This document shows, piece by piece, positions 45,128 through 60,307 of a stretch of DNA of 64,000 bases. The DNA comes from Candidatus Anammoxibacter sp. GTDB taxonomy: Bacteria; Planctomycetota; Brocadiia; Brocadiales; Anammoxibacteraceae. The stretch covers positions 1 through 64,000 of the forward strand of contig JAIQZQ010000051.1 of NCBI GenBank assembly GCA_021777105.1, in the 5' to 3' direction. The notes under the pieces were generated by a model. The model had not been told where the DNA came from. It made no database searches and saw nothing but the letters and a program-made list of their open reading frames with translations. The position numbers were made by a program, and so were the translations under genes. Each line of letters starts with the position of its first letter. The first letter of the stretch is position 1.

Positions 45128-45433
45128 ATGAAGTGGACTGTAATGATAATGGGGCAAGCAAAAAAGAATCAGAAAAAGTTGCCTGTAAAGACCCGCCATA
45201 TGCTGGACACTTTTATTAAAAAACTTGAATTGTTTGGTCCGCGTCTTGAATCATGGACGCCGGATGAAAGGCTCAAGTATAAAAACTATGGACCTTTAAA
45301 GGGTATTTTAAAAGGAAGTTATCATTGTCATTTGAATGCTCATGGAAAACCTGCATATGTAGTGTGCTGGAAAGTGACAAATTTTAAAGTGGAGGTTTGG
45401 TATGCCGGAACTCATGAAAAAGCGCCTTATTGA
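45128..45433 (+). CDS. RelE-like toxin
   Basis: A 101-residue basic protein of the RelE/ParE-like type II toxin group. The visible pattern is a helix pair with KKNQKKLPVKTRHMLDTFIK, followed by strands with LKGILKGSYHCHLNAHGKPA and YVVCWKVTNFKVEVWYAGTH, which fit the beta-sheet of ribosome-dependent mRNA interferases. The antitoxin gene overlaps its 3' end by 32 bases. Toxin-first order is seen in HigBA-type systems. Confidence 0.82.
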   Translation: MKWTVMIMGQAKKNQKKLPVKTRHMLDTFIKKLELFGPRLESWTPDERLKYKNYGPLKGILKGSYHCHLNAHGKPAYVVCWKVTNFKVEVWYAGTHEKAPY

Positions 45434-45776
45434 TGAAACCGAGATTATTGTAATGGGAAAAAAGCCCAAACGCTTTGCCGTGCCCAAGGATAAGGCAACA
45501 GGCGTGGTTAAGCTTTTAAAAGATTATGAAATAAGAGATGACGGCATTACACGCATGAATGCATTCAAGGACTTGCATGAAAAAAATAGTGAAGCCGGCT
45601 CAATTTTAAAGGGAGAACGGTATACCGCCGGAATGACTCAAGTTGAATTAGCTGAAAAGCTTGGCATAGATCAGGCTGACGTGTCTAAAATGGAGTCAGG
45701 AAGGCGTCCAATAGGCAAAATTATGTCAAAACGTTTAGCAAATGTGTTTAAGACAAATTATAAGATATTTCTGTAA
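45402..45776 (+). CDS. XRE-family antitoxin
   Basis: A 124-residue protein with a C-terminal helix-turn-helix: GMTQVELAEKLGIDQADVSK, then MESGRRPIGKIMSKRLANVF. The N-terminal part with KRFAVPKDKATGVVKLLKDY is presumably the toxin-binding region. It overlaps the upstream RelE-like gene, so the pair is translationally coupled. It likely represses its own operon. GTG or ATG starts a little downstream are possible. Confidence 0.85.
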   Translation: MPELMKKRLIDETEIIVMGKKPKRFAVPKDKATGVVKLLKDYEIRDDGITRMNAFKDLHEKNSEAGSILKGERYTAGMTQVELAEKLGIDQADVSKMESGRRPIGKIMSKRLANVFKTNYKIFL

Positions 45777-45902: not shown

Positions 45903-46226
45903 ATGAAATTTAAAGGAATATGGCATATTCAGGAAATGGACATGTGGGATGCCGACTATTTTAATGAGGAGGTTCAGGCTTATATCAAAATTAAATCAGA
46001 CGGCTTGGGCGAGTTCCAGTTTGGCTACGTTTCTGGCGAAATAGACGGAGAGATACTAAAGGGTGAATCAGACGAGAGACTGGTTTTTTCGTGGGAAGGA
46101 GATAATGAATGCGACCCTGTGACCGGCGCCGGTTGGTTAAAATTAAAAGATAAAAATACACTCGAAGGATGGTTTAAATTCCATTTAGGAGATAGTTCCG
46201 GATTTATAGCCAAACGGGCAAAATAA
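45903..46226 (+). CDS. Small conserved-type hypothetical protein
   Basis: A 107-residue protein of unknown function. It starts MKFKGIWHIQEMDMWDADYF and continues with regularly spaced strands (GEFQFGYVSGEIDGE, LVFSWEGDNECDPVTGAGW, LEGWFKFHLGDSSGF), suggesting a small beta-barrel. I recall similar sequences as isolated small genes, often in accessory DNA, but cannot name a family. GGCCTAACAAT just before the start and GGCGTTATG after the stop resemble integron cassette boundaries. Confidence 0.7.
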   Translation: MKFKGIWHIQEMDMWDADYFNEEVQAYIKIKSDGLGEFQFGYVSGEIDGEILKGESDERLVFSWEGDNECDPVTGAGWLKLKDKNTLEGWFKFHLGDSSGFIAKRAK

Positions 46227-46266: not shown

Positions 46267-46648
46267 ATGGCTAAAAAGAAGAAAAATATAAATAAAGGCC
46301 CTCGCAGAAAACGAATGGCTCGTGAAAGAAGGCTCTCTTCAGGCGCGCTATGGTTGCAAGGTTGTAAGGGCAAGAATGTTGTGCGGAAATATATGAAGTG
46401 GTTTGGGCAATATGAAGTTTGCGCTATAACTGAACTGCGTCTTTTAGGCATTTCCATATCCGATGAACGGCTGGAACAGGCAAGACGTAATTGTGATGAT
46501 AAAGCAAAACATCGCAAAAGAAGAACAGCAACTGTTTTTAGAAGATTCAGATGAGAATTTCTATTTTATAGCGGGATATACATCCAGTGGATTTCCATAT
46601 GGCGTAGCATGGGATGAAATAGAGGATGCTCCTGATTTTGAAAAATAG
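46267..46648 (+). pseudogene. Frameshifted small hypothetical gene
   Basis: Two overlapping open frames look like one gene. The first encodes KGPRRKRMARERRL, KYMKWFGQYEVCAITELRLL and DERLEQARRNCDDKAKHRKR; the second encodes LEDSDENFYFIAGYTSSGFP followed by YGVAWDEIED. Removing one T from the T5 run at 46535-46539 would join them into a protein of about 126 residues. The break is either a real inactivation or a sequencing/assembly error in a homopolymer. Function unknown. Confidence 0.65.
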
Positions 46649-46903: not shown

Positions 46904-49900
46904 CTACCCCTTCAAAAACCTGCCCAAATCATACAACGCCAATGTGCCGTTAGCGTTAGCAGTGATAATATGCATAGGGTTCGCTGTTGAAAAGGCTATA
47001 TGCCATGGCATCCATTTTAGCGGCAATGTTTCAATCTCTTTAGCCGCTTCAGTATCCCAAAGTTTAAGGATACCGTCAAAAGAACCGGACACAACTGTTT
47101 TACCGTCAAAAGAGAATGTACAAGAGGTGACAGGATACTTATGTCCTTCAAATGTAAGTATCTCTCTGCCTGTATCTATGTTCCACAATTTTAAGGTATT
47201 GTCATGTGAACCGGATAGTACCGTTTTTCCGTCAGGCGAGAACGCGCATGATCTTATAGAATCTTTATGTCCTTCAAATGTCAGCGACTCTTTGCCTGTC
47301 TCTATATCCCACAGTTTAAGGTTATTATCATGTGAGCCAGATAAAGCCGTTTTTCCGTCCGGTGAAAATGCGCACGATATTACAGGATCTTTATGTCCTT
47401 CAAATGTGAGTATCTTTCTACCTGTATCTACGTCCCAAAGTTTAAGTGTACTGCCCTCTGAATCAGCAAGCACAGTTTTGCCATTAGGAGAAAATGCGCA
47501 CGAAAATACATAATTATTATGGCCTTCAAAAGTAAGAATCTCTCTGCCTGTATCAACGTTCCACAATTTAAGGGTTTGGTCACCAGAACCGGAAAGTGCA
47601 GTTTTACCATCTGGCGAAAAAGCACACGATATTACACGGTCTTCATGGCCTTCAAAAGTAAGAATCTCTCTGCCTGTCTTAACGTTCCACAGTTTAAGAG
47701 TGTTATCAGATGAACCGGAGAGGATCGTTTTTCCGTCTGGTGAGGATGCGCACGTTTCAACATTGCCATTGTGCCCTTCAAAGGGGAGAATCTCTCTGCC
47801 ATTCTCAATATCCCAAAGCTTAATGGTGTTATCAAACGAACCTGATAACGCGGTTTTGCCATCTGGGAAAAGGCCACACGACAAAACATTGGATTTATGA
47901 CCTTCAAAAGTTCTCAGTTCTCTACCCGTTTCAACGTTCCAAAGTTTAAGTGTGCTGTCATATGATCCGGAGATAGCAGCTTTCCCATTCGGCAAGAATA
48001 CACACGTTTCAACATGGCCATTGTGTGCTTCAAAGGAGAGGAGTTCTTTTCCGGTCTCAACATCCCAAAGTTTAGAGGTGTTGTCATATGATCCAGACAC
48101 TACTGTTTTACCGTCCGGTGAGAATGCGCACGATGTTACACGATCTTTATGACCTTCAAAAGTATGAATCTCCCTGCCAGTCTCTGCGTTCCAAAGTTTA
48201 AGGGTGTTATCCGTTGAACCTGAGAGTATAGTTTTGCCATTAGGAGAAAATGCGCACGAAGAAACTGAGCCTTTGTGCCCTTGAAATAAGAGAAGTTCTT
48301 TTCCAGTCTTAATATTCCAAAGTTTAAGTGTATTATCATGAGAACCGGAAAGCATTGTTTTACCACAAGGAGAAAATGTACAAGGACCAACAGAATCTTT
48401 GTGCCCTCCAAATGTAAGGATCTCTTTCCATGTCTCAACGTTCCAAAGTTTTATGGTGTTGTCATACGAACCAGTGAGCATTGTTTTACCGTCAGAGGAG
48501 AATACACACGATGTTACACAGCTTTTATGGCCTCTTAAAACGGAAATTTCCCTTCCAGTCTTTACGTCCCACAGTTTGAGGCCACTGTAAAAAGAACTGG
48601 AAATGATTGTTTTACCATTAGGAGTGCAAGAAACGGCGACAACAGCTCCAGAATGCTTTAAATTAGGAGAACCGTATATTCCAATAAGAGCGCCTTTGGC
48701 TGAATTTTCCTTATAATAACTGAAGTTTTTGTCAAACGGTGACCCTGGCAGATCTAATTTAAGAATGGATTGAATCTTTTCCCCTTTCACAGTCCTAATC
48801 TTATCCATTGCTTCATTTAAACCTTGAGAGGTCAATTTGTTAACGAGTTCTATGTTGATAGTCGCTTTTAAAAAAAGTTTCCTTCTTGCCACAATTTCCG
48901 ACGAGATCTCTTTATCCCAACTCAGAATGTACCCTTTCCAAAAAGTATCCATACACAATGGGATTATATTGCCATACTCTTTAATATAGGTTTCCAGCTC
49001 CTTTTTATTATCACTGAAAAGCATATTTTTTAACCCGAGGTAAACCCACTCTTTCCTCTTTAACTCTCTGTTTATTGCCTCTTCTTCCCTGTCTCGATAT
49101 TTTTTCAGGTTACGGCAGTTAAGAGCTTTGCGTTCAGTCGCTTCTACTTCCGACAGGCAACGGAACGGGAGTGTGGAAGGCCATCTGGCGTCCTTAAAAT
49201 ATTGGCTGACGGACTGAAGCAGGGCCGCGCCCTTTTTATAATCGCCATGGCCGCAAGCAAGGGGCAGCGATTCCAGATTGTGGCGTTCAACATCCTTTGC
49301 CATAGCGTTTACTATGCTGCTCTTTATTCTGCTATTTCTGTTTTCCATTGCGTTTACAAGATGACGCGCCGCAAGGAACTCCATTATTGTGGAGTGGATA
49401 AACAGGTACTCTCTATGGCCCGTGGATATAAACATATGCTCGGTTATAAAGAACCTCAGCCACTCTTTTGCTTTTGATTCTATATCCGGTTTGTCAATTT
49501 TTTGACTGCCGCTTTTTTCAATTGCCCGGTAATACACCTTTAAACACTCTCTAAAATGGTCGAGTATGTCGTCCTCTTGTAAAGTCCTGCCTTTTTGTTT
49601 TTCATCAGAGTTAAAAAGAGTCTCAAATGCCAGGCTTGAGAGTGCGTTGTATTGGTTGGCGATCTCGGGCTTCTTTTCCAGAAAGTCGTCCCTGTCCGAC
49701 TCTGTAAAAAAACTTGGTATATCCCGGTACTCGCCCTGGAAATCCCCTGTCTTTATCCCCATCCACGCCTTGCAAATAACAAACTTTACAATAAGATCGT
49801 ATGTGGGATATCTAAGGTTAAACTCCTTATAGGTTTCGAAATAGACAAGCAGAAGCATGGCTGTTAGAGGCGTGCCGGCGATTGATTTGACCACCGGCTC

Positions 49901-52792
49901 CTGCCATATCCTGTCGTTAAAGAGCCTCAGGGTTTCAGACTTGTTGCTGTAGAATTGACGCGCCATCTGTTGCATCTGGTGCATGGTGATCGGGTTGACG
50001 TGAAATACAGGCTGGTCGATGCGGCTAACCCTGTGGTATTCGGCTGTGCGCGATGAGATAAAGACGCGGTTCTCCGAGGCTTCATCCTCTTCCTTTTCAG
50101 GGTTGTTTATCTTTGTCATTAGAAATTGGGTTATGTTTACAACCCAATCCTTTGCGTCAATAGACGGCGACTCGTCCAGGGCGTCGATAAATATTGTAAG
50201 CCCCCTCTTTTGCCAGGCAAACATGGCGTCGTTGCATGCGATTTCAAGCTCTTCCTTCTGGTCGTCCGTAAGCTCTTCAATTCCCAGTTTAGGGAATAGA
50301 AAGGCCAGGCTGAGCATGCCCAGGACATCTTTTATTGAACCATGCTTTTCGGCCCCGTTAAAACTTGCGGGATCAAGATCCATGCAGTTTATATATATAA
50401 GGTACGACTCTCGACAATCCAAAAGGAGCTGAAACGCCAGATGTTTTAAAATAGTGGTCTTGCCGGCGCCGGGAACGCCCAGTATTATCCCTTTGTTAAA
50501 ACGGCTCAATATATCCTTTGCGTTAATAGCGTTATTGTCGCGGCATTTTGCCTTTTGCAGGTCATCTTCAATCATATGCCTTTTGTTGTAATCCTTAAAC
50601 TCCCTGAAATCGCCGCGCTCTCCTTCCATCTTCCATTCAGTGTCAAGTGATAGGTCTATGAAGTTGTCGTCCATCTCAATATCAGGATAGAGGTTGCCGA
50701 AGATGCGAATCTTCTTTACCGAATCAAACAGGGTCTCAAGCCGTTTTTTATAGGTATCGCTAATGAGTCTGCCTTCGACCTTATCTTCCCTGGGCGGTAT
50801 AAGTTTGTATGTGCTATGTATGGGGCCCAGGGCCTCAAAGCCTTTTAGCGGGTCGGGCCATATCTCCTTAACATGCGTAATTTTGTTCTTTTCCAGCAGC
50901 GGTTTTAAGCCGGTGAAAAGGCTGTCGGACACAACCAGCTCGCACGCCCCGGCGTACTTCTCCTGCCGAAACGCTTTAATCGACTCCGACCCTGCTGCAT
51001 CAGCCTTTTCGCCTCGGCTTCCTTTAAAAAATGTGAAGAACCCTGAATTTGCAATCATGCGCAGTTTTGCGTCAAAGCCAAACCTGCCGGGAATTGGGCG
51101 GCGCACAAAAAAGTCGAGCATCAATTCAATAAGATCATTAGGGTTTTGCCCGAAAAAGAGGATCGCGTCCCCAATGCTTTTAATATATTCGAAACGGTTC
51201 TCGTCGATTATTTTGCGGGATTCAGCGATAAAATACTCAATGAATTGGACAGTCTTGTGGTCGCCAAATTTATTTACCTGCGATGTGAACTTAACAATGT
51301 CGATAAGGGCCATTATGCCCATCTCCTGAAACGGCTCGCCGGTTTCTGTTGCGCGTCGCTGCTCAATAACTATCTGTTCGTATGATGGTCTTGCTGTCCA
51401 GCGCCCAACTGTAACCGGCGCCTCTTGTGTCTGTTTTGGGTTTTTAGAAATAGCAACCCGGCTTTCAATAAATATTTCCTCACGCAACAGCGCCAGCCAG
51501 AGCGGGACAACGGCTATCCCCTGCGCGGGGTTGGGGTTGTATTCGTCGCCTGAGATTATTATGCCTTTGGAGAATTGAGAGTTATCGCATAATTTAAGCA
51601 GTTTCTCATTTTTCTCCGGCGCAGGCGAATCAGTTGAAGTTATTTCAACGGCAATATCATTGTCGTTGTATGATGCGGTAAAATCCGCTTCCATTGAATT
51701 GTCAAGGTAGTATGCGGCGTCAATATCGCGGCGAAGCAGTTCAATGAAAAATATATTCTCAAATATCCTGCCGCGATTTTTTAACAAACTATTGCCCGCT
51801 GCCTGAACCATGCCGTGGTCAATGCAGTATATCTTTGGTTTTTCGCGCATCCTGACCTTGTCTTTATAGCTGAAAAACGGAAGTTCGGTAAAAAGGAAAT
51901 TTGTTTTAAGCTCTTCCAGATAGTTTTGAACCGTTTTTACGGTAACGTCTGCCGCATCGCTCAGAGATCGAGCGGAAAAGCGAGAGCCAAAATTTTTAGC
52001 AAGATAGTCCGCCAGTTTTTTAAGGGCAAACGGCGCGCGAATACTGCCGGCGCGAACCTTGATGTCCCTTTCAATGATATCTATAAAATACCTTTTTAAA
52101 GTAGCGCGCCTGATATCGTCAGTCTCCAGTATAGCGGCAACTTCAGGAAAGCCGCCAATCTTAATGTAATCCTCAAAATGGTTTTTTACAATATGGACAT
52201 CGTTTGAATAAGCCAGGCCGCTTTCATCGCCTTCATATTGAAAACCGCGCGCGGTCAGATACTCTTTAAATGAAAACGGGAATACTGTAATTAAATTGTT
52301 GCGGCCTGTAAGCGCGGTTGAAGCGGACGACTGGTTTATCTTGCCGGACGAGCCGGTGATGATTAGTTTAAACGTTTTTTCATCGTCAAAGATGCGTTTG
52401 GCCCACCACTCCCAATCTTCAACTTCCTGTATCTCATCCAGAAGCAGGTATATCTTTCCTTTTTCAGGCGGGTGCTTCTCTTTTTGAAGCTTTAACAGAT
52501 CGTCGAGATCGGATGAATCAATTTTGCCTAAATAGTCGTGGTCAAGTTTGAAGTATATTATGTTTGCTTTTGGCGCCGGCAAATCAAAGATAAGATGTTG
52601 GGCAAGCTGTTTAAGCAAAGTCGTTTTGCCCGATCGCCTGACACCGGCTATAATATCGACCTTTGCGTCGTCCAGATTGGCGACAAGCTGGTCAAAATAG
52701 CTCCTTTGAACTATTTCTTCCTTGCCCAGGGTATCCAGAAACTCCCTGGATTTGACAATAAATTTCGTGAAATTTTTTACTTTAGCGGTCAT
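46904..52792 (-). CDS. Giant ATPase - cyclase-like - NACHT - 14 x WD40 fusion protein
   Basis: A 1962-residue, apparently cytosolic protein. Residues 1-460: AAA_14/DUF4143 ATPase with Walker A GVRRSGKTT (about 53), Walker B YLLLDEIQEVEDW, a DUF4143 domain and a PD-(D/E)XK-like end (EADFTASYNDNDIAVEITS). About 485-680: class III nucleotidyl-cyclase-like domain with the two metal-binding Asp (LIDIVKFTSQ, KSIGDAILFFG), but no clear VNxAxR motif. About 690-1365: STAND NTPase with a NACHT module, Walker A GVPGAGKTT (about 770) and Walker B FIDALDES (about 870), plus helical repeats. About 1370-1960: 14 WD40 repeats of 42 residues, enough for two seven-bladed propellers. STAND proteins sense ligands through such repeats; defence or signalling is likely. 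The ATG is clear. Confidence 0.93.
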   Translation of the reverse strand: MTAKVKNFTKFIVKSREFLDTLGKEEIVQRSYFDQLVANLDDAKVDIIAGVRRSGKTTLLKQLAQHLIFDLPAPKANIIYFKLDHDYLGKIDSSDLDDLLKLQKEKHPPEKGKIYLLLDEIQEVEDWEWWAKRIFDDEKTFKLIITGSSGKINQSSASTALTGRNNLITVFPFSFKEYLTARGFQYEGDESGLAYSNDVHIVKNHFEDYIKIGGFPEVAAILETDDIRRATLKRYFIDIIERDIKVRAGSIRAPFALKKLADYLAKNFGSRFSARSLSDAADVTVKTVQNYLEELKTNFLFTELPFFSYKDKVRMREKPKIYCIDHGMVQAAGNSLLKNRGRIFENIFFIELLRRDIDAAYYLDNSMEADFTASYNDNDIAVEITSTDSPAPEKNEKLLKLCDNSQFSKGIIISGDEYNPNPAQGIAVVPLWLALLREEIFIESRVAISKNPKQTQEAPVTVGRWTARPSYEQIVIEQRRATETGEPFQEMGIMALIDIVKFTSQVNKFGDHKTVQFIEYFIAESRKIIDENRFEYIKSIGDAILFFGQNPNDLIELMLDFFVRRPIPGRFGFDAKLRMIANSGFFTFFKGSRGEKADAAGSESIKAFRQEKYAGACELVVSDSLFTGLKPLLEKNKITHVKEIWPDPLKGFEALGPIHSTYKLIPPREDKVEGRLISDTYKKRLETLFDSVKKIRIFGNLYPDIEMDDNFIDLSLDTEWKMEGERGDFREFKDYNKRHMIEDDLQKAKCRDNNAINAKDILSRFNKGIILGVPGAGKTTILKHLAFQLLLDCRESYLIYINCMDLDPASFNGAEKHGSIKDVLGMLSLAFLFPKLGIEELTDDQKEELEIACNDAMFAWQKRGLTIFIDALDESPSIDAKDWVVNITQFLMTKINNPEKEEDEASENRVFISSRTAEYHRVSRIDQPVFHVNPITMHQMQQMARQFYSNKSETLRLFNDRIWQEPVVKSIAGTPLTAMLLLVYFETYKEFNLRYPTYDLIVKFVICKAWMGIKTGDFQGEYRDIPSFFTESDRDDFLEKKPEIANQYNALSSLAFETLFNSDEKQKGRTLQEDDILDHFRECLKVYYRAIEKSGSQKIDKPDIESKAKEWLRFFITEHMFISTGHREYLFIHSTIMEFLAARHLVNAMENRNSRIKSSIVNAMAKDVERHNLESLPLACGHGDYKKGAALLQSVSQYFKDARWPSTLPFRCLSEVEATERKALNCRNLKKYRDREEEAINRELKRKEWVYLGLKNMLFSDNKKELETYIKEYGNIIPLCMDTFWKGYILSWDKEISSEIVARRKLFLKATINIELVNKLTSQGLNEAMDKIRTVKGEKIQSILKLDLPGSPFDKNFSYYKENSAKGALIGIYGSPNLKHSGAVVAVSCTPNGKTIISSSFYSGLKLWDVKTGREISVLRGHKSCVTSCVFSSDGKTMLTGSYDNTIKLWNVETWKEILTFGGHKDSVGPCTFSPCGKTMLSGSHDNTLKLWNIKTGKELLLFQGHKGSVSSCAFSPNGKTILSGSTDNTLKLWNAETGREIHTFEGHKDRVTSCAFSPDGKTVVSGSYDNTSKLWDVETGKELLSFEAHNGHVETCVFLPNGKAAISGSYDSTLKLWNVETGRELRTFEGHKSNVLSCGLFPDGKTALSGSFDNTIKLWDIENGREILPFEGHNGNVETCASSPDGKTILSGSSDNTLKLWNVKTGREILTFEGHEDRVISCAFSPDGKTALSGSGDQTLKLWNVDTGREILTFEGHNNYVFSCAFSPNGKTVLADSEGSTLKLWDVDTGRKILTFEGHKDPVISCAFSPDGKTALSGSHDNNLKLWDIETGKESLTFEGHKDSIRSCAFSPDGKTVLSGSHDNTLKLWNIDTGREILTFEGHKYPVTSCTFSFDGKTVVSGSFDGILKLWDTEAAKEIETLPLKWMPWHIAFSTANPMHIITANANGTLALYDLGRFLKG

Positions 52793-57226: not shown

Positions 57227-60200
57227 ATGAAGATTTCAGCTAAAATAATAGTTGCTGCCCTGTTTTTTATGTCGGGGGTTAGCGGTTTGATATATGAGGT
57301 GACGTGGATCAGGATGTTCGGCCACGTATTCGGCATCACAACATACGCCGTCAGCGCCGTTATTGGGGCCTTTTTTGCGGGGTTGGCGTTAGGCGGCTTT
57401 TTAGCCGGAAAGCGCGCGGACATTGCAGGAGCCGGGCCTGTCGATGAAGCGGGAGCTATCGCAAACCCGCATATTAAAAGTCGGCTAATCTTGATTTACG
57501 CATACTTGGAGCTTGGCATCGCGGCCTCGGCGGTAATGGTTTATGCGGCAATGCCGGGCCTGAAAAGCTTGTTTGTGTGGTTTAATCATAGCGCCGGAGG
57601 CTCTCCCGTAACATTAAATATTGCCCGGTTTGTTTTATCGTTTGCCATTTTGCTTATACCTTCGACCCTTATGGGCGCGACATTGCCGATATTAAGCAAG
57701 TTCTTTATAAGCCGGTATCAGAAGGTTAAACAGGGGCTTGGGCTGCTTTACGGCATTAATACTTCAGGCGCGGCGATTGGATGCCTGGCCGCAGGTTTCT
57801 ATCTGGTTGGTACTTTGGGGGTATTTGAAACCATCTGCGTTGGGGCGGCAATAAACCTGGCAATCGGCGTGGCGGCATTAATACTGAACAAAACGAGCGT
57901 TTTTAACATAGCGGATGAAAAAGAGCCGCAAACTGCAACAGAGCATGAACTTGAAGACAAAAATTGCAAACAAAAATCGTCTCGCGCAAAATCAGCCGTA
58001 AAAGAGCGAACTTTAAAAGCGCGTTCAACATTAAAACCAGGCAATGCGACGCGTAAAAATAATGATTTGCCGAAACCGATAATCAACGCGCTTATGATAG
58101 CTTTCGGGGTTTCAGGTTTTACCTCAATTGCTTACGAGATTATATGGACGCGCATGCTCTCTTTAGTATTTTTAAACAGCATTTATAGCTTTACTACAAT
58201 GCTGGTTACTTTTTTGACGGGCATTGCAGTTGGGGCTTTAATCGCCGCAAGATTTTTTAGAAAAGGGGTTAAGCCTATTGCGCTGTTCGGCATAGTGGAG
58301 TTCGGCATCGGGGTTTCAACGATATTGTTGATATTGCTTTTTCATAAAATACCTGATATTTCGGCCTGGCTGGGATCCTCCAACGCCTTTAACGGCGGAG
58401 CTATGACCTGGGGCGGCAATGTTAAAATTGAATTTGCCCTGTCGTTTATGATTATGATTGCGCCCAGCGTGTTGATAGGCATGACGCTGCCTATTGTGGG
58501 TCAAATTATTACAAACGATGTAAAAATCCTTGGACGCAAAATTGGGAGCATTTATTCTATAAACACTGTTGGCGGGATTATTGGGGCGTTGGTTGCGGGC
58601 GTTTTATTAATACCTGCTCTGGGTTTTAAAAATAGCGAGCTTTTGTTAGGGGGAATAAACATTTGCATAGGTTTAATATTCTTATGCATTGCCGATAAGC
58701 GCAACAAGGTTTGGGGCGGCAACGCTCACCCGGCAAGAAAGGTTTTGGCCCCTGTTTTGTGCGTATCGGCCATTGGGATTGGATGTTATTGCTCTTTTAA
58801 AGACATACGGGTGTGGGATAAAAATAACGAGCTGCTATATTATAAGGAGGCTGCGGCCGCCACGGTATCGGTAACGCGCGAAAAAGACGGCAACAGAAAA
58901 CTTGTGGTAAACAACAGGTATACGTTGGGCACAAGCGTGGCCGAGCCGCTCCAACTGCGCATGGGCTACATCCCCCTGCTGCTTCATGGGGAGCCGAAAG
59001 AGACGCTGATAATCGGCATGGGCACGGGCATTACCGCCGCCGCCGCAGTCATGCATGAACAGACGGAGACGGTTAATTGCGTTGAGGTGATATCCGACGT
59101 GGCAAAGGCCGCGCAAAAATATTTTGCTAATGAGAACGGGGCTTTATGGCAAAGCGAAAAACTTAATATAATAATTGGCGACGGCAGAAACCATTTGCTG
59201 CTGAACAAAAAGCAATACGATGTTATCATTTCAGATCTGTTTGTGCCGTACCACGCCGGAGCCGGATCGCTTTACACAAAAGAGCATTTTAATGTATGCA
59301 GGGAGCGTTTGCTTGAGGATGGGCTGTTTTGCCAATGGTTGCCGCTTTACCAGATGTCTGAAAAGGAGTTTAAGGCGATTTGTAAAACATTTACACAGGC
59401 GTTTCCGCATGCAACGCTCTGGTTTTGCAATTTTGAGCGGGGTTTGATATGCGGTTTGATCGGCTCAAATCACAAACAGATGATAGATCCTTTTTATCTT
59501 GCCGGCAATATGAGGGCCGGCAACATGAGAAACAAACTGAAAACCGCCGCTATTGGAGGCCCGAAAGAGCTGTTAAGCCTTTATATAACTGACAAGGGCG
59601 GAATAGAAGCGTTTGCGGAAGAGGGGGCTATAAACACTGATAATCTGCCTGTAATAGAGTTCTTCTCCCCTAAAAACATATTCGCCGGACAGGATAGAGA
59701 CTTAAAGAGCGCAAAAAAAGGGTTCACTCATCCCGGGCTTAAAAATCTTTCAATCGCCGCGAATTTAAAAGGCGACGTCGCCAATGTTGTAAGTTTTAAC
59801 GGTAGAAAATATGCCCGCCCCTCAACTTTAGAATCAAAGGAAGCTGAGAACGCCGAGCTTAAAGACGCGGGCTATTACTCGGACGCGGCGCGCCACATCA
59901 TCGCAGGAATGATATACTTTTATAGAGATATGTTGGCCGAGGCTGAGGAGGAGTACCTGACGGCATGGGAACTTGCGTCCGACCATCTTTATCTGCGAAA
60001 AGTGTTCCAGGACCTTTCGGTAAAATTCTACCGTATGGGGAATTATAAAGAGACGATTTTTATAAACGAAAAGCTTGCCGACGCTGAGGCCGATATTATA
60101 GACCCATATTTACATTTCTATCTTGGGCTCGCTTATCAGGCAGTGGGCGAGGATGTAAACGCTATTTCCGCGTACCGCAACGCAATTGCTTTAAAACCAA

Positions 60201-60307
60201 AAAACATTGCGGCTATACATTATAATATGGGCATTATATATCAAAATCAGGGATTTCATGAAAAGGCGAGCGTAAAATTTGACGAGGCCAAAAAGGCTGC
60301 TCAATAG
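57227..60307 (+). CDS. Membrane-fused spermidine-synthase-like protein with TPR tail
   Basis: A 1026-residue protein. Two sets of membrane helices (about 1-225 and 280-495) are MFS-like and each begins with a GxxxLIYExxWxRM-type signature (SGVSGLIYEVTWIRMFGHVF; SGFTSIAYEIIWTRMLSLVF). A basic linker of about 60 residues joins them. The aminopropyltransferase domain (about 540-730) has ETLIIGMGTGITAAA, CVEVISDVAKAA, IIGDGRNHL and YDVIISDLFVPYHAG. The last 150 residues contain TPR units (YLHFYLGLAYQAVGEDVNAI, IHYNMGIIYQNQGFHEKA). Such proteins are widespread; their polyamine activity is unproven. Confidence 0.92.
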   Translation: MKISAKIIVAALFFMSGVSGLIYEVTWIRMFGHVFGITTYAVSAVIGAFFAGLALGGFLAGKRADIAGAGPVDEAGAIANPHIKSRLILIYAYLELGIAASAVMVYAAMPGLKSLFVWFNHSAGGSPVTLNIARFVLSFAILLIPSTLMGATLPILSKFFISRYQKVKQGLGLLYGINTSGAAIGCLAAGFYLVGTLGVFETICVGAAINLAIGVAALILNKTSVFNIADEKEPQTATEHELEDKNCKQKSSRAKSAVKERTLKARSTLKPGNATRKNNDLPKPIINALMIAFGVSGFTSIAYEIIWTRMLSLVFLNSIYSFTTMLVTFLTGIAVGALIAARFFRKGVKPIALFGIVEFGIGVSTILLILLFHKIPDISAWLGSSNAFNGGAMTWGGNVKIEFALSFMIMIAPSVLIGMTLPIVGQIITNDVKILGRKIGSIYSINTVGGIIGALVAGVLLIPALGFKNSELLLGGINICIGLIFLCIADKRNKVWGGNAHPARKVLAPVLCVSAIGIGCYCSFKDIRVWDKNNELLYYKEAAAATVSVTREKDGNRKLVVNNRYTLGTSVAEPLQLRMGYIPLLLHGEPKETLIIGMGTGITAAAAVMHEQTETVNCVEVISDVAKAAQKYFANENGALWQSEKLNIIIGDGRNHLLLNKKQYDVIISDLFVPYHAGAGSLYTKEHFNVCRERLLEDGLFCQWLPLYQMSEKEFKAICKTFTQAFPHATLWFCNFERGLICGLIGSNHKQMIDPFYLAGNMRAGNMRNKLKTAAIGGPKELLSLYITDKGGIEAFAEEGAINTDNLPVIEFFSPKNIFAGQDRDLKSAKKGFTHPGLKNLSIAANLKGDVANVVSFNGRKYARPSTLESKEAENAELKDAGYYSDAARHIIAGMIYFYRDMLAEAEEEYLTAWELASDHLYLRKVFQDLSVKFYRMGNYKETIFINEKLADAEADIIDPYLHFYLGLAYQAVGEDVNAISAYRNAIALKPKNIAAIHYNMGIIYQNQGFHEKASVKFDEAKKAAQ

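What the first reader, a model, noticed from the sequence alone, without database searches (positions are those of the whole stretch)
46904..52792. DUF4143 ATPase, cyclase-like domain, NACHT NTPase and 14 WD40 repeats in one protein
The 1962-residue chain carries two separate P-loop NTPases (Walker A GVRRSGKTT and GVPGAGKTT), a class III cyclase-like domain keeping both metal aspartates, and exactly 14 WD40 units. STAND/NACHT proteins with repeat sensors are known in antiviral defence and signalling, and cyclase domains can make second messengers. I know of no described system with this domain order. It lies in accessory DNA beside a toxin-antitoxin pair.
Basis: partly seen in the sequence, partly recalled or inferred. 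Interest (0 to 1): 0.85.

Follow-up and report, generated by a model that had tools for sequence, protein, structure and literature searches.

The report
NLR-like bacterial protein with cyclase domain
A 1962-residue protein from an anammox-order planctomycete joins a repeat-built sensor and a molecular-switch ATPase, the layout of plant, animal and bacterial immune receptors, to a nucleotide-cyclase domain and an extra ATPase; this combination has not been described as far as I could check, but its function is untested.

Summary
One uninterrupted ORF (46904-52792, minus strand, 1962 aa) encodes AAA_14-DUF4143 ATPase, class III cyclase-homology domain (CHD), NACHT STAND ATPase, helical linker and 14 WD40 units of 42 aa. 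The CHD assignment survives profile, profile-profile and structure tests (best PDB match: Rv1900c cyclase domain). Both metal aspartates, the adenine-type Lys/Asp pair and the transition-state Arg are kept. The transition-state Asn is Ile, as described for DUF2652 cyclase-like proteins. Activity is therefore plausible but unproven.

The only relative found, in a Candidatus Brocadiaceae MAG, has CHD-NACHT-WD40 without DUF4143. So the core is a STAND/NLR-like receptor whose effector slot holds a CHD, and DUF4143 is a lineage-specific N-terminal fusion. It occurs in 2 of 75 genomes of its class, in different families, so it is patchy accessory content. The same genome also encodes a TIR-NB-ARC-WD40 protein with the same plan and a different effector.

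Most likely mechanism (inferred): a ligand binds the double WD40 propeller, NACHT oligomerises, CHDs pair and form active sites, and a cyclic nucleotide is made. Defence is the likeliest role but no defence evidence exists. New variant of a known kind.

The parts
46904..52792 (-). Whole ORF, 1962 aa: AAA_14-DUF4143 / class III cyclase-homology domain / NACHT / helical linker / 14 WD40 units
51473..52792 (-). aa 1-440: AAA_14 ATPase + winged helix + DUF4143 (PD-(D/E)XK-like fold from family knowledge; acidic EADF kept, but VEITS where an ExK would be expected), Walker A aa 50-58
   Evidence: Pfam 3.8e-33 and 3.8e-20; PADLOC PDC-S01 7e-93; alignment with stand-alone relatives
51341..51472 (-). 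aa 441-484: linker between the DUF4143 module and the CHD; no in-frame start codon; weak but in-frame coding signal
   Evidence: sequence; codon score 0.12 against 0.33 (sd 0.10) for 45-codon stretches of the ORF; 1.3% of off-frame stretches score as high
50753..51340 (-). aa 485-680: class III cyclase-homology domain; D498 and D542 (metal), K538 and D598 (adenine-type base recognition), R609 (transition state), LKG 649-651 kept; transition-state Asn replaced by I605
49343..50569 (-). aa 742-1150: NACHT STAND ATPase with winged-helix end; Walker A 772-780, Walker B FIDALDE 868-874, SSR 913-915, FIHSTIMEFLAAR 1131-1143
48707..49342 (-). aa 1151-1362: linker between NACHT and WD40 with no Pfam match; about 100 aa longer than in the homologue; ends near the shared DKNFSYY...GSPNLKH motif, which runs into the first WD40 unit
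46925..48688 (-). aa 1369-1956: 14 WD40 units of 42 aa, enough for two 7-blade propellers
45128..45433 (+). Neighbour, probably unrelated: RelE/YafQ-like candidate toxin, 101 aa
   Evidence: weak
45402..45776 (+). Neighbour, probably unrelated: HTH_3 candidate antitoxin, 124 aa

Best explanation
It is a STAND/NLR-like signalling receptor that carries a class III cyclase domain in the effector position. Shown by sequence and structure comparison: domain identity and order, an intact NACHT switch, most of the CHD active site, and a CHD-NACHT-WD40 core shared with one relative. Inferred: at rest, two 7-blade WD40 propellers hold the NACHT ATPase closed. Binding of a partner (a foreign or damaged protein) opens it, ATP replaces ADP and the protein oligomerises. 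This brings CHDs together; class III cyclases form their active sites between two CHDs, so oligomerisation would switch them on and a cyclic nucleotide (cAMP by the K538/D598 pair, possibly relaxed specificity because Asn is Ile) would be made as the alarm signal. The N-terminal DUF4143 ATPase is a lineage-specific addition of unknown role, perhaps a second output or a regulator. The most likely biological use is conflict or defence signalling; that last step is the least certain.
For: CHD, NACHT and WD40 keep their order and 39-43% identity in a Candidatus Brocadiaceae homologue, so this core is the selected unit. NACHT motifs are intact in both. CHD fold supported by HMM against shuffles, hhalign and model plus Foldseek, top hit Rv1900c CHD, E=3.4e-11. 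D498, D542, K538, D598, R609 are kept in both proteins. Asn-to-Ile is the described state in mycobacterial DUF2652 cyclase-like proteins, and Rv1900c lacks the Asn too (PMC4886424). The layout effector-NACHT-sensor is the one described for bNACHT proteins (PMC12169576). Patchy distribution, 2 of 75 class genomes in different families, fits accessory conflict genes. The same genome has a TIR-NB-ARC-WD40 protein. cNMP cyclase domains are described as parts of bacterial conflict systems (PMC7159879).
Against: No activity, ligand or phage data. The transition-state Asn is missing, so the CHD may be weak or dead. The homologue lies among housekeeping genes (clpP/tig on one side, nitroreductase/murA on the other) with no defence neighbour. 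No gene for a cyclic-nucleotide receptor was seen among the neighbours scanned. Only two members are known, so conservation arguments rest on one comparison. The homologue's contig has only 3 WD40 units, too few for a closed propeller (possibly collapsed in assembly).
Confidence: 0.5

Rival explanations
1. Pseudo-cyclase: the CHD no longer catalyses; it binds a nucleotide or only dimerises, and the output comes from NACHT assembly or from the DUF4143 ATPase module.
For: Asn replaced by Ile605 and shortened glycine-rich loop. Several cNMP cyclase domains in conflict systems are reported as catalytically inactive (PMC7159879).
Against: Both metal Asp, the base pair K/D, the Arg and LKG are all kept in two proteins only about 40% identical, which argues for retained function. 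Asn is dispensable in Rv1900c according to PMC4886424.
Confidence: 0.3
2. Ordinary regulatory adenylate cyclase, comparable to mammalian soluble adenylyl cyclase (CHDs followed by a predicted STAND module): it tunes cAMP in response to a metabolite or cell state and is not a defence protein.
For: sAC joins class III catalytic domains to a predicted STAND domain with a P-loop (PMC12802110). The genome has eight other CHD proteins. The homologue has housekeeping neighbours.
Against: Very patchy occurrence: absent from 73 of 75 held genomes of the class, including the sister genus of its own family. NACHT plus a long WD40 array is typical of receptors rather than metabolic cyclases (established knowledge).
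Confidence: 0.3
3. The DUF4143 part and the rest are two genes: the fusion is a recent stop-codon loss, or the CHD-NACHT-WD40 protein is made from an internal start (M490 or M494).
For: The only relative starts at the CHD. In the 199 phylum genomes searched, DUF4143 relatives lie in stand-alone frames of 340-522 aa; the one longer frame (904) has a non-homologous GC-rich extension. Linker coding signal is about 2 sd below the ORF mean. An AGGAG lies 9 nt before M494.
Against: The frame is open over the whole length with no start codon in the linker, linker codons still score above 98.7% of off-frame stretches, and weak similarity to the relative begins upstream of M490.
Confidence: 0.2

Closest known systems
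Bacterial NACHT (bNACHT) / Avs STAND anti-phage proteins
   Same: Tripartite plan: N-terminal effector, central NACHT ATPase, C-terminal sensor (PMC12169576)
   Different: Effector is a CHD, plus a DUF4143 ATPase; sensor is WD40. Described effectors in the papers read are nucleases or undefined. No defence test.
NWD1/NWD2/TEP1 and APAF-1; fungal HNWD receptors (HET-D/HET-E)
   Same: Effector-(NACHT or NB-ARC)-helical linker-WD40; two 7-blade propellers are modelled for HET-E (PMC12222747) and WD40-gated oligomerisation is known for APAF-1 (PMC13174449)
   Different: Effector is DUF4062, CARD or HET there, CHD here. Repeats here are 63% identical with saturated synonymous sites, not concerted-evolution arrays.
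Soluble adenylyl cyclase (ADCY10)
   Same: Class III catalytic domains followed by a predicted STAND module (PMC12802110)
   Different: Two CHDs there, one here; the WD40 array and the DUF4143 module have no counterpart described there.
DUF2652 cyclase-like proteins and Rv1900c
   Same: Class III fold without the transition-state Asn; Ile at this position in mycobacterial DUF2652 (PMC4886424); Rv1900c CHD is the top PDB match
   Different: No DUF2652 Pfam match for this protein; those proteins are mostly single-domain.
Pycsar (PycC)
   Same: Class III cyclase used in phage defence
   Different: No PADLOC PycC match for this protein and no adjacent cyclic-nucleotide-binding effector among the neighbours scanned.
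AAA_14-DUF4143 ATPases (PADLOC candidate PDC-S01)
   Same: aa 1-440 is a full-length member
   Different: All others examined are stand-alone proteins; role untested.

Membership tests
NACHT-clade STAND ATPase | Walker A, Asp-rich Walker B, SSR-type sensor, winged-helix EFLAA-type motif | tested here: met
   All present in both proteins; PF05729 E=4e-5 but 2.8 bits below cut-off
NLR-like / bNACHT defence protein | Tripartite effector-NACHT-sensor order | tested here: met
NLR-like / bNACHT defence protein | Protects against phage or triggers cell death on ligand | not testable with these tools
   needs phage challenge
Class III nucleotide cyclase | CHD fold | tested here: met
   (the model's alignment contained other CHDs, so the fold match is partly guided; searches are independent of that)
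Class III nucleotide cyclase | Two metal-binding Asp | tested here: met
   D498, D542
Class III nucleotide cyclase | Transition-state Asn and Arg | tested here: not met
   Arg609 kept, Asn replaced by Ile605; known exceptions exist, so this lowers the claim of canonical activity rather than of class III ancestry
Class III nucleotide cyclase | Makes cyclic nucleotide | not testable with these tools
   needs enzyme assay
Pycsar PycC | PycC profile match and adjacent cUMP/cCMP receptor effector | tested here: not met
DUF2652 | Pfam PF10851 match | tested here: not met
   no match in own genome or domain scan
AAA_14-DUF4143 ATPase | AAA_14 and DUF4143 profiles over cut-off with Walker A/B | tested here: met
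WD40 repeat family | Tandem 40-44 aa GH...WD units, in propeller-compatible number | tested here: met
   14 units of 42 aa; propeller closure itself not modelled

The most novel reading that the evidence does not exclude
A single-protein immune receptor in which ligand-driven NACHT oligomerisation directly switches on a class III cyclase, joining NLR-type sensing and second-messenger alarm signalling (as in Pycsar/CBASS) in one chain, with a second ATPase module added in this lineage.
Probability: 0.3. Interest if true: 0.85.

Novelty: new variant of a known kind. Interest (0 to 1): 0.6.

Why it matters
NLR-like receptors and cyclic-nucleotide alarm systems are two main branches of bacterial immunity and are normally separate. 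A protein with a cyclase in the effector slot of a NACHT-WD40 receptor would be a direct link between them and is a compact test case for whether STAND oligomerisation can drive CHD pairing, an idea also open for mammalian soluble adenylyl cyclase.

Tried and rejected
A first AF2 model with a two-sequence alignment was useless (pLDDT 44.6) and is not used. Pattern scans for relatives in 84,980 genomes and in viral contigs, and tblastn in phages and plasmids, gave only the Brocadiaceae homologue; the scans depend on exact short peptides, so distant relatives may be missed. A possible second DUF4143 fusion (G178, 904 aa frame) was rejected: the extension is GC-rich frame noise. Recent homogenisation of the WD40 repeats was rejected: synonymous sites are saturated and overall dN/dS is 0.15. 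The blade-to-blade variable positions (14, 15, 17, 33) lie where WD40 repeats vary generally, so I do not claim diversifying selection. A DUF4143 nuclease effector was not adopted: this protein has VEITS where an ExK would be expected, and the relatives aligned also lack the motif. A functional link to the toxin-antitoxin pair was rejected: separate, opposite strand, over 1 kb away, absent from the homologue's locus. Two further class-wide searches around other planctomycetes gave nothing but covered only 21 genomes.

Full report
Observation. The ORF at 46904-52792 on the minus strand is 1962 codons long without a stop. Domain scans place AAA_14 and DUF4143 at aa 1-440, a class III cyclase-homology domain (CHD) at 485-680, NACHT at about 742-1150, and 14 WD40 units of exactly 42 aa at 1369-1956.

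The cyclase domain. Pfam alone is marginal (E=6e-4, below the curated cut-off). Three further tests settle it: an HMM built from 12 other CHDs scores it at 33.6 bits against 10.6 for the best of 500 shuffles; profile-profile comparison gives 96.9% probability, E=1.7e-10 over 153 columns; and an AF2 model built on a 24-sequence alignment (pLDDT 75.8) matches class III cyclases in the PDB, first the CHD of Rv1900c, E=3.4e-11. The alignment for the model contained known CHDs, so the fold result is partly guided; the first two tests are not affected. D498 and D542 (metals), K538 and D598 (adenine-type recognition), R609 and the LKG motif (649-651) are kept; the transition-state Asn is Ile605. The homologue shows the same pattern, also with Ile. 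Ile at this place is described in mycobacterial DUF2652 cyclase-like proteins, and Rv1900c has His there (PMC4886424). Activity is therefore plausible, not shown.

The relative and what it says. Searches of 84,980 genome species by pattern, 392 genomes of the phylum and all 75 held genomes of the class found one relative, in a Candidatus Brocadiaceae MAG (JACVXV010000056.1), 945 aa. The taxonomy of that record places the window in the anammox order of Planctomycetota, in another family. The relative has CHD, NACHT and WD40 in the same order at 39-43% identity and shares the motif DKNFSYY...GSPNLKH before the first repeat, but has no DUF4143 module and only 3 WD40 units. Two of those units share a long near-identical DNA stretch (75% identity over the whole unit), so an assembly collapse is possible. 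Its neighbours are clpP, tig, a nitroreductase and murA, named from their sequences: no evident operon partners.

The DUF4143 fusion. Stand-alone AAA_14-DUF4143 ATPases are numerous in the genome (over 20 matches) and in the phylum, with open frames of 340-522 aa. Only the window protein continues into other domains. The 44-residue linker has no start codon and a weak but in-frame coding signal, which fits a recent fusion. An internal start at M490 or M494 cannot be excluded.

The WD40 array. Fourteen units fit two 7-blade propellers. Units are 63% identical in protein and 68% in DNA, synonymous sites are saturated and dN/dS is 0.15: an old array under constraint, unlike the concerted arrays of fungal HNWD receptors (PMC12222747).

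Context. The gene lies between a weakly supported toxin-antitoxin pair plus two small unknown ORFs and a glycine-betaine transporter operon. In the sister genus G001 the transporter genes are present at 67-69% identity, but the gene is not beside them and is not found in that genome. This supports accessory status. The genome also codes for a TIR-NB-ARC-WD40 protein, TIR-like and WD40 proteins (TIR there judged by eye) and a WD40 protein ending in a complete CHD.

Mechanism. The best reading is a STAND receptor whose CHD effectors are paired and activated by NACHT oligomerisation on ligand binding to the WD40 propellers. Domain identity, order and residue conservation are shown. Autoinhibition, oligomerisation, catalysis, ligand and purpose are inferred from known families: bNACHT plan (PMC12169576), APAF-1 and TEP1 (PMC13174449), sAC (PMC12802110), cNMP cyclase domains in conflict systems (PMC7159879). 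Rivals are a dead CHD, a non-defence regulatory cyclase and a two-gene reading of the fusion. These are not mutually exclusive (the two-gene reading is compatible with any of the others), so the confidences do not sum to one.

Novelty. No paper in the library searched describes CHD-NACHT-WD40 or the four-part order, but that library lacks most subscription journals. I rate it a new variant of a known kind: STAND receptor with a new effector, rare, function open.

Noticed in passing
L144 (own genome contig C1) 542-7624: Type III-D CRISPR RAMP genes (Cas5_IIId, two Cas7_IIId) followed by a 412 aa class III cyclase-like protein (PF00211 1e-10, weak PADLOC PycC matches) that also lacks the transition-state Asn (Val); a stand-alone cyclase next to a type III CRISPR module looks unusual.
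   Followed up: partly
L143 (own genome contig C109) 2244-5858, minus strand: TIR-NB-ARC-WD40 protein of 1204 aa, an APAF-1/plant-NLR-like layout in the same bacterium.
   Followed up: partly
L054 (own genome contig C67) 2400-5513: 1038 aa protein with N-terminal WD40 repeats and a C-terminal class III cyclase with a complete catalytic set, no STAND domain noticed.
   Followed up: no
L055 3665-8029 and L056 2184-5225 (own genome): Proteins with an apparent TIR-like N-terminus followed by WD40 repeats (and TPRs in L055); TIR assigned by eye only.
   Followed up: no
own genome, many contigs: More than 20 AAA_14-DUF4143 ATPase matches in one genome; the family's role is unknown and PADLOC lists it only as a defence candidate.
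   Followed up: partly
window 45903-46226 and 46267-46554: Two small ORFs without any Pfam match between the toxin-antitoxin pair and the finding.
   Followed up: no
window 57227-60307: 1026 aa protein combining an MFS-like membrane part, a spermidine synthase domain and TPR.
   Followed up: no
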